Positions 11,512-18,565 of a stretch of DNA of 64,000 nucleotides are shown piece after piece. The DNA is from Actinomycetota bacterium. GTDB lineage: Bacteria > Actinomycetota > Thermoleophilia > Solirubrobacterales > Solirubrobacteraceae. Every line of letters begins with the position of its first letter. Position 1 is the stretch's first letter. Below the pieces are notes generated by a model that saw only the letters and a program-made list of their open reading frames with translations, had not been told where the DNA came from and ran no database searches. The stretch spans positions 310,001 to 374,000 of the forward strand of contig JAFDWH010000009.1 in assembly GCA_018268595.1 (NCBI GenBank), written 5' to 3'. Made by a program: the position numbers and the translations under genes.

Positions 11512-11829
11512 TCAGCAGTCCGCGAGCGCGTCGAGCGCGTCGCAGACCTCGTGCCGTCGGGCCGCGGAGAGCGCGCCGATCCGCGCGGTGAGCAGGCGTC
11601 GGTTGACGGGCTGCAGGTTGTCGAACGAGGCGGCGCACTCGACCGGCAGCCCTTCGTCGGCGCCGAGCGGGACCTCGGTGGGGATCTTGCGCACCGTGCG
11701 CGTCACCGGAGCGACGACGAGGCGGCTCAGGACGGGGATCGCCTCGTTGCGGGTGACGACCAGCACCGGCCGGCGCTTGTCCTCCGCCTCCGCCCACCAC
11801 AGCTCGCCCTGGCGGGGGTCGCTCACCAC
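11512..11829 (-). CDS. MazF/PemK-like endoribonuclease toxin
   Basis: 105 aa. The family pattern is clear: GELWWAE near the N-terminus, KRRPVLVVTRNEA, VAPVTRTVRKIPTEVPL, then CAASFDNLQPVNRRLL and a C-terminal helix. MazF toxins cut single-stranded mRNA or rRNA at short motifs; the conserved Arg and Thr of the second and third strands (RRPVLVV, PVTRT) are present. It overlaps the upstream antitoxin gene by 7 bp, so both should be co-translated. The recognition sequence is not predictable. Confidence 0.85.
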   Translation of the reverse strand: MVSDPRQGELWWAEAEDKRRPVLVVTRNEAIPVLSRLVVAPVTRTVRKIPTEVPLGADEGLPVECAASFDNLQPVNRRLLTARIGALSAARRHEVCDALDALADC

Positions 11830-12074
11830 GGCTCCTCGGCGATCATCGCCGCCGTCGCCGCGTCCGGCCAGGTGAGGTCGTCCGCGTCCTGCGGGACCCG
11901 CCGGTAGCCGTCAGCGATCGCCTGCCCGACGGCGGCGCGCCGCTCGCGCTCGACGACAGCCTCCAGCCCAGCCCGGACGGCCTCGGATCGCGAACCAAAG
12001 ACACCGGCTCGCACGAGCCCGTCCACCGCCTCCGCGACAGCGTCGGGCACGCGGGTGACGAGCTGCACGGTCAT
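11823..12074 (-). CDS. ribbon-helix-helix antitoxin (partner of MazF-like toxin)
   Basis: 83 aa, start MTVQLVTRVPDA. An N-terminal ribbon strand is followed by VDGLVRAGVFGSRSEAVR, a typical second helix of RHH regulators. The C-terminal tail is acidic and Trp-containing (DDLTWPDAATAAMIAEEPW), suited to fill the toxin cleft. An in-frame upstream ATG at 12107 is rejected because a well-spaced promoter (TTGTGA, 17 bp, TATGTT) places the transcription start at about the ATG of 12074. It should repress its own leaderless operon. Confidence 0.8.
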   Translation of the reverse strand: MTVQLVTRVPDAVAEAVDGLVRAGVFGSRSEAVRAGLEAVVERERRAAVGQAIADGYRRVPQDADDLTWPDAATAAMIAEEPW

Positions 12075-12109
12075 AGCCAGAACATAGCGATTTGCATTGC
12101 AACTCACAA
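12075..12109 (-). promoter_or_regulatory. sigma70-type promoter of the mazEF-like operon, leaderless
   Basis: On the minus strand TTGTGA (12109-12104), a 17-bp spacer and TATGTT (12086-12081) are followed six bases later by the antitoxin ATG. A start six to seven bases after the -10 box implies an mRNA that begins at its start codon. The spacer contains TTGCAATGCAAA, a near-palindrome that could bind the antitoxin. Confidence 0.55.
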
Positions 12110-12816: not shown

Positions 12817-13569
12817 CTACTCCGTCTCCCGCCGCGCGTGCTCGTCGCGGCGCTTGACGAGCAGCCACTGAGGCGCGTCGCCGCCGCGCGTGCGCTGGAG
12901 CGCGAAGCCGCCGCGCAGCTGCTCGCCGTGCAGCACGAAGACGGCGTGGCCGCGCTCAAGCGCCTCGGGCCAGGGCACGCGGCCGCCCTGCTCGTAGGGC
13001 CCGCGGTCCCACACGGTCGCGTCGGCGCCGGAGCCGGGATCGGCCGCGAGGCCGCCGGCCGCTTCCGGCGCAGCCAGCTCGACCGCGAAGCGCTTGTCGG
13101 CCGGGTCCATCGACGGCCGCTTCGGCAGCGCCCACGCGCGCACGCCCCCGTCGACCTCCAGGCGCAGCTCGAAGCGGCTGCGGCCGCCGACGCGCTCCAG
13201 CACCGCGAAGCGCCCTGCGCTGACGCCGCGCACCGCGAACTGCTCGTGCCCCTCGACGCGCACCGGCTGCGCCTCGACCGCCGCCACCTCCGCCCCGCGC
13301 GGCCCCTCGCGCAGGAACGCCGTCAGCGCCGCGACCGCCGCCGCCGGCCCCTCGGCGTGCAGCTCGACCGCGCCGTCGTCGCGGTTGCGCACCCAGCCCA
13401 GCACGCCGAGCGAGCGCGCGCGCCGCACCGTCGCCTCGCGGAAGCCGACGCCCTGCACGCGGCCGCGCACGACCGCGCGCACCGCCGCCGCACCGTCCGC
13501 GCCCGAGCCGGGAACCTCGCCCATCGGCCACAGCCTGACACGCGCCGGCCGCGGCGGCCGGCCGCTCAA
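12817..13569 (-). CDS. acylphosphatase fused to a degenerate LigD-type 3'-phosphoesterase domain
   Basis: 250 aa. Residues about 30-118 are an acylphosphatase: GRVQGVGFR (36-44) and [17 protein letters not shown] carry the catalytic Arg44 and Asn62. Residues about 120-245 match the phosphoesterase (PE) domain of bacterial DNA ligase D along their length: [52 protein letters not shown] and WLLVKRRDE. In LigD the metal ligands lie in KHDASRLHYDFRLE and EDHPxxY. Here the equivalent positions are Arg126, Arg132 and Glu134, the DHP motif is absent, and only Arg136 is kept. The PE half is therefore probably inactive and may bind nucleic acid or phosphate, while the acylphosphatase site looks intact. 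The start is uncertain (Met16 also possible). Confidence 0.8.
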
Positions 13570-17116: not shown

Positions 17117-17871
17117 GCAACCCGACCGCGATCCCGGTCGAGGACCCGGCCGTCGTCACGGTCGAGAACAGCGTCCCGCGCGCGGTGCCGCCAGTCGGTC
17201 CGGACACGCCGCTGCGCGCCTACTGGGCGGCGCGCGCGCACCAGCACACGCACGACCGCTACCTCGGCATCAAGCTGTCGAAGTTCCCCGAGGACCTGCG
17301 CGTCTACGAGCACCTGATGTGGGTCGCCGCGCCTGACACGATCGTCGAGCTGGGCGCGCAGTCGGGCGCCTCGACGCTGTGGCTGCGCGACCGTCTGCGC
17401 ACGCTGCAGCAGTACGGCGCGCTCGCCGCGCCGCCGCGCGTCGTCGCCGTCGACATCGACCTCGACGCCGCGCGCCACAACGTCGCGCTGCGCGACCCGG
17501 CGTGGGCGGAGTCGATCGCGTTCGTCGAGGGCGACGTGTGCGACCCGGCGGTGCGCGCCGAGGTCGGAACGCACATCCGGGCCGGCGCCGTCTGCATGGT
17601 GATCGAGGACTCCGCGCACGTGTACGCGACGACGAAGGCCGCGCTCGAGCTGTACAGCGACCTGATCGCACCCGGCGGCTTCTTCGTCGTCGAGGACGGC
17701 TGCGTGGACGTGCCGTGGATGCGCATCAAGCCCGACTGGCCCGAGGGCGTGCTGCCCGCGCTGGACGAGTGGCTCGCCACTCCGCAGGGCTCCGCCTTCC
17801 GCGTCCGCCGCGAGCTCGAGGTCTACGGCGTCAGCTGCCACCCGGGCGGCTTCCTGCAGCGGGTCGGCTAG
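17113..17871 (+). CDS. CmcI/rhamnosyl O-methyltransferase family protein
   Basis: 252 aa. Conserved parts of the CmcI family are visible: RYLGIKLSKFPEDLRVYEHL, the SAM motif TIVELGAQSGASTLWLRD, VVAVDIDLDAARH, IEDSAHVYATTKAALELY and GGFFVVEDGCVDVPW. Members methylate sugar hydroxyls (rhamnose of mycobacterial and mycosamine-type glycolipids) or act in cephamycin synthesis. It is the last gene of the glycan cassette. Its stop overlaps the stop of the convergent PIN gene by 3 bp. A sugar O-methyltransferase role is inferred from context. Confidence 0.8.
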   Translation: MSNPTAIPVEDPAVVTVENSVPRAVPPVGPDTPLRAYWAARAHQHTHDRYLGIKLSKFPEDLRVYEHLMWVAAPDTIVELGAQSGASTLWLRDRLRTLQQYGALAAPPRVVAVDIDLDAARHNVALRDPAWAESIAFVEGDVCDPAVRAEVGTHIRAGAVCMVIEDSAHVYATTKAALELYSDLIAPGGFFVVEDGCVDVPWMRIKPDWPEGVLPALDEWLATPQGSAFRVRRELEVYGVSCHPGGFLQRVG

Positions 17872-18263
17872 CGCCAGTCGCCCGGCCGCACGACGCGCAG
17901 CCCCGGCACACGCTCGAAGCGGCGCATGTTGCGCGTCACGAGCGGCGCGTCGGCGTCGAGGCATACGCCCGCCTGCAGCGCGTCGCGCACGTCGATGCCG
18001 CGTCCGTCGCCGCGCAGGCGCGCGAGCGCCGCGCCCCCCAGCAGGCCGCCGCGCGGCGTGAGCGCCAGCGTCGGCGCGTCGAGCAGCGCCTGCACGGGGC
18101 GCGGGTCGAGCCGGTGCGCCGCGCCGAGCGCCAGCTCGAACGCGCTCACGGCCGTCACGCGGTAGCCGCCGCGACCGAGGTGCGCGAGCAGCTCCGCGCC
18201 CGGCCCGCTGCCGCGCAGGTAGTCGATCAGGACGTCGGTGTCTACGACCGGGCCGTCGGCCAC
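17868..18263 (-). CDS. PIN domain toxin (VapC-like), minus module
   Basis: 131 aa. PIN acidic residues are in VVDTDVLIDYLRG, FELALG, IDVRDALQAGVCL and the terminal LVTRNMRRFERVPGL. The GTG start at 18263 overlaps the antitoxin gene by 22 bp; no later start codon precedes the essential first Asp, so this is the shortest workable start. The product should be a Mg2+-dependent RNase. It is co-transcribed with the antitoxin at 18242-18493 from the intergenic region shared with a second, divergent vapBC. Confidence 0.8.
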   Translation of the reverse strand: MADGPVVDTDVLIDYLRGSGPGAELLAHLGRGGYRVTAVSAFELALGAAHRLDPRPVQALLDAPTLALTPRGGLLGGAALARLRGDGRGIDVRDALQAGVCLDADAPLVTRNMRRFERVPGLRVVRPGDWR

Positions 18264-18493
18264 GTCGCCCACGCGTCTCTCAGCTCGGCCTCGAAGCGCC
18301 GCGCTTCGGCAGCGCTCCACGCCCCGCGGGCGGCCGCGAAGGCGTCGTCCGCCGGCGCTTGATCGGCGTCGCGTTCGAGGTACTCGCGCAGCGCCTCCTC
18401 GACGATCGAGGAGAACCCGCGCACCCCGCGCTCGGCCGCCCGCGCGCGCAGGCGACGGTAGATCGGATCGGACAGCTCGACGGTCGTGCGCAT
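18242..18493 (-). CDS. ribbon-helix-helix antitoxin (VapB-like), minus module
   Basis: 83 aa. MRTTVELSDPIYRRLRARAAERGVRG followed by FSSIVEEALREYL is a complete ribbon-helix-helix domain. The C-terminal part (AFAAARGAWSAAEARRFEAEL) is amphipathic and would contact the toxin. A -10-like TAATCT lies six bases before the ATG, with a -35-like TTGAGC 18 bp further up, indicating a leaderless mRNA. It is head-to-head with another vapB whose start is 72 bp away, so either antitoxin could influence both operons. Confidence 0.85.
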   Translation of the reverse strand: MRTTVELSDPIYRRLRARAAERGVRGFSSIVEEALREYLERDADQAPADDAFAAARGAWSAAEARRFEAELRDAWATWPTARS

Positions 18494-18565
18494 GCCCGGA
18501 GATTACCAAGCACATGCATGCATGCTCAAATGCCATATATATGTCCTGGTAGTCTGCATTGCTGC
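18494..18565. promoter_or_regulatory. shared bidirectional promoter/operator between two vapBC modules
   Basis: This AT-rich 72 bp holds ATGCATGCAT (18514-18523) and CATATATATG (18534-18543), both perfect palindromes. The same extended -10-like motif TGGTARTCT occurs on each strand: TGGTAATCT on the minus strand (18508-18500) and TGGTAGTCT on the plus strand (18547-18555). The mirrored motifs mark two divergent promoters flanking the palindromic core. Confidence 0.6.

What the first reader, a model, noticed from the sequence alone, without database searches (positions are those of the whole stretch)
12817..13569. Acylphosphatase fused to a degenerate DNA-ligase-D phosphoesterase domain
Residues 30-118 are an intact acylphosphatase (Arg44, Asn62). 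Residues 120-245 align along their whole length with the LigD PE domain, but the metal-ligand positions have become Arg126, Arg132 and Glu134 and the DHP motif is lost. A catalytic domain may have become a binding domain attached to an acylphosphatase. No such fusion is known to me.
Basis: partly seen in the sequence, partly recalled or inferred. Interest (0 to 1): 0.75.

Follow-up and report, generated by a model that had tools for sequence, protein, structure and literature searches.

The report
Acylphosphatase fused to dead phosphoesterase
A bacterium carries a protein made of an apparently working acylphosphatase joined to a DNA-repair phosphoesterase domain that has lost its metal site; many relatives in its order carry the same fusion, most with the phosphoesterase site intact, and the acylphosphatase half has usually decayed where a separate acylphosphatase gene is present.

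Summary
The minus-strand ORF 12817-13569 encodes an intact acylphosphatase (AcP) domain, a linker and a full-length LigD phosphoesterase (PE) domain whose three metal ligands and DHP histidine are gone. The fusion occurs in 79 of 232 genomes held for the order (Solirubrobacterales by record titles). In 64 of 79 the PE ligands are retained, so PE loss is lineage-specific, not an alignment error. The AcP half has lost its catalytic pair in 32 of 79, mostly where the genome has a separate AcP gene: state and gene content agree in 75 of 79, and in 48 of 49 genomes at least 90% complete. The window genome has no other AcP found except HypF's, so this protein is probably its acylphosphatase. Seven proteins lost both sites yet, like the other classes, keep a near-invariant linker (EGHEQFAxRG) and PE C-terminal half. 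That points to a retained non-catalytic role, binding or domain docking, not tested. Five searches of an open-access library found no description.

The parts
12817..13569 (-). AcP-PE fusion gene (250 codons from TTG, stop 12817-12819; possibly from ATG 13522-13524, 235 aa)
13234..13479 (-). acylphosphatase domain, residues 31-112
   Evidence: Pfam PF00708 E 9e-22; Foldseek 1w2i TM(target) 0.88
13438..13464 (-). AcP phosphate loop GRVQGVGFR, residues 36-44, with catalytic Arg44
   Evidence: sequence; Arg44 and Asn62 both kept in 47 of 79 fusions
13384..13386 (-). AcP catalytic Asn62
   Evidence: sequence
13213..13257 (-). linker, residues 105-119 ([15 protein letters not shown]), near-invariant in the fusion family
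   Evidence: mean conservation 0.97-0.99 in the four classes; His108, Glu109, Gln110 fusion-specific; low pLDDT
12832..13212 (-). LigD-type PE domain, residues 120-246
   Evidence: Pfam PF13298 E 3e-15; 3n9b E 2e-19 and Foldseek TM(target) 0.70
13162..13194 (-). former PE metal site, residues 126-136: Arg126, Arg132, Glu134 in place of His, His, Asp; Arg136 kept
   Evidence: roles from passages of PMC8656161
13018..13080 (-). degenerate segment, residues 164-184, which in relatives holds the DH motif (His84) and the Tyr88 position
   Evidence: mean conservation 0.10 and 0.09 in the two PE-dead classes against 0.96 and 0.94 in the PE-intact ones, over 5 positions
12832..13017 (-). conserved PE C-terminal half, residues 185-246 ([29 protein letters not shown]...)
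   Evidence: mean conservation 0.94-0.98 in the four classes over 40 positions

Best explanation
The gene belongs to an AcP-PE two-domain family found here only in the order Solirubrobacterales. In the window organism the N-terminal domain works as the cell's acylphosphatase; this is inferred from its intact active site and from finding no other AcP except HypF's. The PE domain has lost its metal site and no longer acts as a 3'-phosphoesterase; this is inferred from residues shown elsewhere to be essential. It is kept because the linker and the C-terminal half of the PE barrel form a conserved non-catalytic module, most likely a binding or domain-docking surface; this is inferred from conservation only. 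The ancestral fusion probably had both sites active, and either site can be lost.
For: Both domains are certain. PE ligands read HHDRH in 64 of 79 fusions and are lost in 15, the window included. AcP pair Arg44+Asn62 against a separate AcP gene: 46 intact with none found, 29 lost with one, 3 lost with none found (G156, G415, G416; 89%, 73%, 75% complete), 1 intact with one (G101, whose loop reads NGADFR). The rule was seen on 66 genomes (64 agree), then checked on 13 more (11 agree). On the protein tree, in 6 independent pairs on supported branches the two traits go opposite ways in 4.9 on average, never the same way. The window genome's only AcP matches are this gene and HypF. The 7 doubly dead proteins keep the linker (0.97) and PE C-half (0.95). 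Fused AcPs (26 of 79 given) fall on one side of a branch apart from 50 separate AcPs (support 69/87).
Against: No activity or binding was measured. AcP is not indispensable: 19 of 48 fusion-less genomes at least 90% complete show no AcP match at all. The tree-corrected sign test has median p 0.0625 and so misses 0.05; the uncorrected p (4e-17) ignores kinship. AlphaFold leaves residues 108-113 below pLDDT 50 and pTM is 0.66, so a fixed interface between the domains is not shown. Apart from shadow frames of the gene itself, no neighbour recurs in more than 5 of 56 loci, so context gives no function.
Confidence: 0.6

Rival explanations
1. The PE domain is a passive relic: it only stabilises the AcP fold and is decaying, with no binding role.
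For: Metal site, the 164-184 segment and the C-terminal tail are lost in the window protein; a tail under 20 residues goes with PE loss (14 of 15 PE-dead, 8 of 64 PE-intact, the latter including G411, whose end is cut by the contig). PE residues 120-163 are also less conserved in PE-dead proteins (0.53-0.72).
Against: The PE C-terminal half is nearly as conserved in PE-dead proteins (0.94, 0.95) as in intact ones (0.98, 0.96), and it persists in 7 proteins with no AcP site left to support.
Confidence: 0.22
2. The invariant linker and the YEQGGRVxWP segment form a new composite catalytic or ligand site between the domains, which is the real conserved function.
For: Fusion-specific, near-invariant polar residues His71, His108, Glu109, Gln110, Gln194, Arg197, Arg206, Gln225; linker and C-half kept in doubly dead members.
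Against: No atomic coordinates were available to show that they cluster; the linker is low-confidence in both models; docking of two domains would also give such conservation.
Confidence: 0.13
3. The altered PE site (Arg, Arg, Glu, Arg) still catalyses something on nucleic acid 3' ends by metal-free or different-metal chemistry.
For: Asp50 is replaced by Glu in 11 of 15 PE-dead members and Arg52 is kept in 8 of 15, so the change is not fully random.
Against: The other positions vary in PE-dead members and the His84 segment is lost; mutants of His42, His48, Asp50, His84 and Tyr88 of P. aeruginosa LigD are catalytically inactive (PMC8656161, passages).
Confidence: 0.04
4. The apparent fusion or degeneracy is an artefact of frame, assembly or alignment.
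For: High-GC DNA with long shadow frames on both strands.
Against: 79 genomes carry the same fusion, and of 48 aligned members 44 match both Pfam profiles.
Confidence: 0.01

Closest known systems
Acylphosphatase (PF00708; e.g. Pyrococcus horikoshii AcP 1w2i/1v3z)
   Same: Same fold (TM 0.88 to 1w2i), phosphate loop with Arg44, and Asn62.
   Different: Fused to a PE domain; His108-Glu109-Gln110 replace the usual Leu-x-Gly of 50 separate AcPs of the order before the last strand, and His71 is fusion-specific.
LigD 3'-phosphoesterase domain (PF13298/TIGR02777; P. aeruginosa LigD PE 3n9b) and stand-alone PE proteins
   Same: Same fold over the domain; in 64 of 79 fusions the His42, His48, Asp50, Arg52 and His84 equivalents are kept.
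   Different: The window copy lacks His42, His48, Asp50, His84 and Tyr88; 50 of 64 PE-intact fusions have His at the Tyr88 position; the loop that reads like EGxYGAG in many stand-alone PE proteins is shorter in the fusions; no ligase or polymerase is attached.
HypF (hydrogenase maturation protein) with N-terminal AcP domain
   Same: AcP domain followed by other domains; the window genome has HypF (L002; zf-HYPF, YrdC and Kae1-like profiles).
   Different: No PE domain; 7 rows taken as HypF from their long frames form a clade of their own in the AcP tree (100/100).

Membership tests
Acylphosphatase | AcP fold and Pfam profile above cut-off | tested here: met
   77.6 bits, cut-off 22.5; 1w2i TM(target) 0.88
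Acylphosphatase | catalytic Arg in the phosphate loop and catalytic Asn (roles recalled) | tested here: met
   Arg44 and Asn62
Acylphosphatase | hydrolysis of acyl phosphates | not testable with these tools
   needs an assay; indirect support from the gene-content rule
LigD 3'-phosphoesterase | PE fold and Pfam profile above cut-off | tested here: met
   56.7 bits, cut-off 31.1; 3n9b TM(target) 0.70
LigD 3'-phosphoesterase | TIGR02777 equivalog-domain cut-off | tested here: not met
   78.2 bits against 144
LigD 3'-phosphoesterase | Mn ligands His42, His48, Asp50 | tested here: not met
   Arg126, Arg132, Glu134 in the window; kept in 64 of 79 fusions; role from PMC8656161 passages
LigD 3'-phosphoesterase | phosphate-binding Arg52, His84, Tyr88 | tested here: not met
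   Arg136 kept; Pro168 and Gly172 in place of His84 and Tyr88
LigD (NHEJ ligase) | ligase and/or polymerase domain in the same protein | tested here: not met
   in 48 members (the window protein whole, 47 relatives trimmed to start near residue 27 and run to the stop) Pfam finds only LigD_N (48) and Acylphosphatase (44); a separate LigD with ligase and polymerase profiles is in the window's genome (L003)

The most novel reading that the evidence does not exclude
The AcP-PE protein is a two-domain scaffold with a third function at the junction: the EGHEQFAxRG linker and the QGGRVxWP/RGHAVF surface form a composite ligand or catalytic site for which both parental active sites are dispensable, as in the seven doubly dead but highly conserved members. 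It would be linked to Ku-type end joining, since 64 of 66 fusion genomes encode Ku against 83 of 135 others.
Probability: 0.2. Interest if true: 0.8.

Novelty: new variant of a known kind. Interest (0 to 1): 0.6.

Why it matters
The cellular role of acylphosphatase is poorly settled (recalled, not looked up). Here nature has run a redundancy experiment: with few exceptions the fused copy keeps its active site when no separate gene is found and has lost it when one is present. That gives a direct way to ask which reaction matters in the cell. The family also joins a DNA-end-healing fold to acylphosphatase, and includes members without either active site whose linker and PE half are still preserved, so a domain pair may have acquired a third role.

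Tried and rejected
Artefact or misalignment was rejected, because 79 genomes share the fusion. Gene neighbourhood led nowhere: apart from the gene and its shadow frames, no ORF cluster recurs in more than 5 of 56 loci; 10 of the 56 loci hold only about 1.5 kb or less on each side and others are cut by contig ends. A mobile-element origin found no support: no match in 50,697 phage records; 458 of 72,556 plasmid records match, none over 80% of the query, and the 8 listed hits cover the PE half, under ligD or unannotated DNA. Occurrence outside the order: in the capped listing no row from outside the order starts before residue 54 of the L037 query; three of those that reach furthest were read and are LigD-type or other PE proteins without AcP; the rest were not read. 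The genome-contig scan kept 80 of 158 confirmed loci. So rare cases elsewhere could be missed.

PE loss is not clearly explained by another PE: of 13 PE-dead genomes in the first 66, 3 have a stand-alone PE, against 3 of 53 PE-intact (p 0.085), and 5 lack a long-frame, LigD-type PE, against 7 of 53 (p 0.049, in the direction against redundancy; neither corrected for kinship). One origin of the PE-dead state was not rejected (p-AU 0.33), nor was the window's genus as one clade (p-AU 0.215), so the number of losses stays open. Viral contigs and PADLOC were not searched.

Full report
What is there. The minus-strand ORF 12817-13569 codes for 250 residues from a TTG, or 235 from an ATG at residue 16; 35 of 48 relatives have a start codon at residue equivalents 16-25. 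Pfam finds Acylphosphatase at 31-112 (E 9e-22) and LigD_N at 132-226 (E 3e-15). By sequence the C-terminal part matches the P. aeruginosa LigD phosphoesterase over 120-246 (E about 2e-19) and the N-terminal part matches solved acylphosphatases. The AlphaFold model (mean pLDDT 81.7, pTM 0.66) superposes on 3n9b (TM by target 0.70) and 1w2i (0.88).

Residues. The AcP pair Arg44 and Asn62 is present. For the PE domain the review PMC8656161 (passages seen) gives His42, His48 and Asp50 as metal ligands, and Arg52, His84 and Tyr88 as ligands of a phosphate mimic, with mutants of His42, His48, Asp50, His84 and Tyr88 inactive. The window has Arg126, Arg132, Glu134, Arg136 (kept), Pro168 and Gly172 there. 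Loss of phosphoesterase activity is therefore very likely, but not measured.

The family. A protein search of 201 genomes of the order gave 66 with a match over both domains. The whole held order is 232 genomes and 13 more carry it, one of them (G411) cut by a contig end. A scan of genome contigs found it in 48 of the 80 loci kept, titled Solirubrobacterales, Solirubrobacteraceae, Conexibacter, Solirubrobacter, Patulibacter, Svornostia, Thermoleophilaceae, Actinobacteria or Actinomycetota, and one MAG titled Bifidobacterium breve that I take as mislabelled. G405 carries a protein identical to the Conexibacter sp. CPCC 206217 copy, on a contig of the same length, and is in the window's genus by the tool's codes.

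PE state. In 64 of 79 fusions the five positions 126, 132, 134, 136 and 168 read His, His, Asp, Arg, His; in 15 they do not. In 50 of the 64 PE-intact fusions the Tyr88 position is His, so even their activity needs an assay. The PE-dead proteins mostly lack the C-terminal tail (14 of 15 under 20 residues, against 8 of 64).

AcP state and gene content. The 66 genomes, then the 13 more, were searched for PF00708. In the first set 35 hits with frames over 200 residues were tested for a HypF body by tblastn: 28 had one, 7 did not. Twenty hits with shorter frames were taken as separate genes and fetched; 19 of them were read. In the second set 10 non-fusion hits were tested: 7 HypF, 3 not. Result over 79 genomes: Arg44+Asn62 intact and no separate AcP found, 46; pair lost and separate AcP present, 29; lost and none found, 3 (genomes 89%, 73% and 75% complete); intact with separate AcP, 1 (G101, whose phosphate loop is altered to NGADFR). 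Among the 49 genomes at least 90% complete, 48 agree. The pattern was seen on 66 (64 agree) and checked on 13 (11 agree). Fisher p is 4e-17 for the 79 and 0.035 for the 13 alone, uncorrected for kinship. On the protein tree, built without the catalytic columns, AcP state needs at least 8 changes; the 6 independent pairs on supported branches never go the same way, with a median sign-test p of 0.0625. The window genome (98.9% complete) has as AcP matches only the fusion and HypF. Against a simple essentiality story, 19 of 48 fusion-less genomes, all at least 90% complete, have no AcP match at all.

What stays. Split by class (39 both intact, 25 AcP lost, 8 PE lost, 7 both lost), positions at least 90% conserved in the intact class keep, in the same order, 0.99, 0.98, 0.99 and 0.97 in the linker and 0.98, 0.96, 0.94 and 0.95 in the PE C-terminal half. 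In residues 120-139 the two PE-dead classes keep 0.56 and 0.53, in 140-163 0.63 and 0.72, and in 164-184 0.10 and 0.09. Residues near-invariant in 73 distinct fusions (PE side) or 79 (AcP side) but uncommon (at most 0.24) in 25 stand-alone PE/LigD domains or 50 separate AcPs include His71, His108, Glu109, Gln110, Gln194, Gly195, Gly196, Arg197, Val198, Trp200, Pro201, Arg206, Val210, Phe222 and Gln225. A second model, of the PE-intact relative L037, has mean pLDDT 91.9 and pTM 0.73 but again leaves the HEQ linker residues under 50. An invariant stretch that the predictor cannot place is compatible with ordering on contact with a partner; that is inference.

How it most likely works. The N-terminal domain is the cell's acylphosphatase in this organism; the PE domain has lost its chemistry; the linker and PE C-half are retained for binding or docking. 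Shown: domain identity, residue loss, gene-content agreement, conservation. Inferred: activity, lack of activity, binding. Ku is encoded in 64 of 66 fusion genomes against 83 of 135 others (Fisher p 6e-9, uncorrected for kinship and genome size). That makes a link to end joining worth testing but shows none; 12 of the 66 have no long-frame, LigD-type PE.

Novelty. The domains are known; their fusion, the mirrored decay of the two active sites and the preserved core were not found in the held literature: 'acylphosphatase' with 'LigD' 0 papers, 'acylphosphatase domain' with 'phosphoesterase domain' and 'fusion' 0, with 'Solirubrobacter' 0, with 'non-homologous end joining' 1, unrelated by its listing, with 'domain fusion' and 'bacteria' 2, not on this subject by their listings. 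That library is open-access only, so absence there is weak evidence.

Noticed in passing
window 11512-11829 (-) and 11823-12107 (-): PemK/MazF-type toxin (E 2e-12) with an overlapping upstream ORF that matches RHH/ParD antitoxin profiles only weakly, below their cut-offs: a likely toxin-antitoxin pair near the fusion gene.
   Followed up: partly
L003 (G000:C31 about 380,000, outside the window): LigD with PE, ligase and polymerase profiles and an intact PE motif in the window's genome; Ku is at G000:C18:223272-223820.
   Followed up: partly
PE-intact fusions, residue 172 equivalent: The essential Tyr88 of LigD PE is His in 50 of 64 PE-intact fusions and Tyr in 4; whether they are active phosphoesterases is open.
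   Followed up: no
linker 108-110 of window protein and the same residues (82-84) of L037 as modelled: The fusion-specific invariant residues HEQ lie where AlphaFold has very low confidence inside the otherwise folded part, in both models.
   Followed up: partly
L072: A MAG record titled Bifidobacterium breve carries the fusion; probably a mislabelled or contaminated bin.
   Followed up: no
L296 (G039:C81:1-900): A separate AcP with QGVNFRAA and HAEG motifs that groups nearest the fused AcP lineage: possible kin of the AcP that was fused.
   Followed up: no
window 17868-18536 (-): ORF with a PIN domain at residues 97-212 (Pfam E 2.5e-6), VapC-like by recall.
   Followed up: partly
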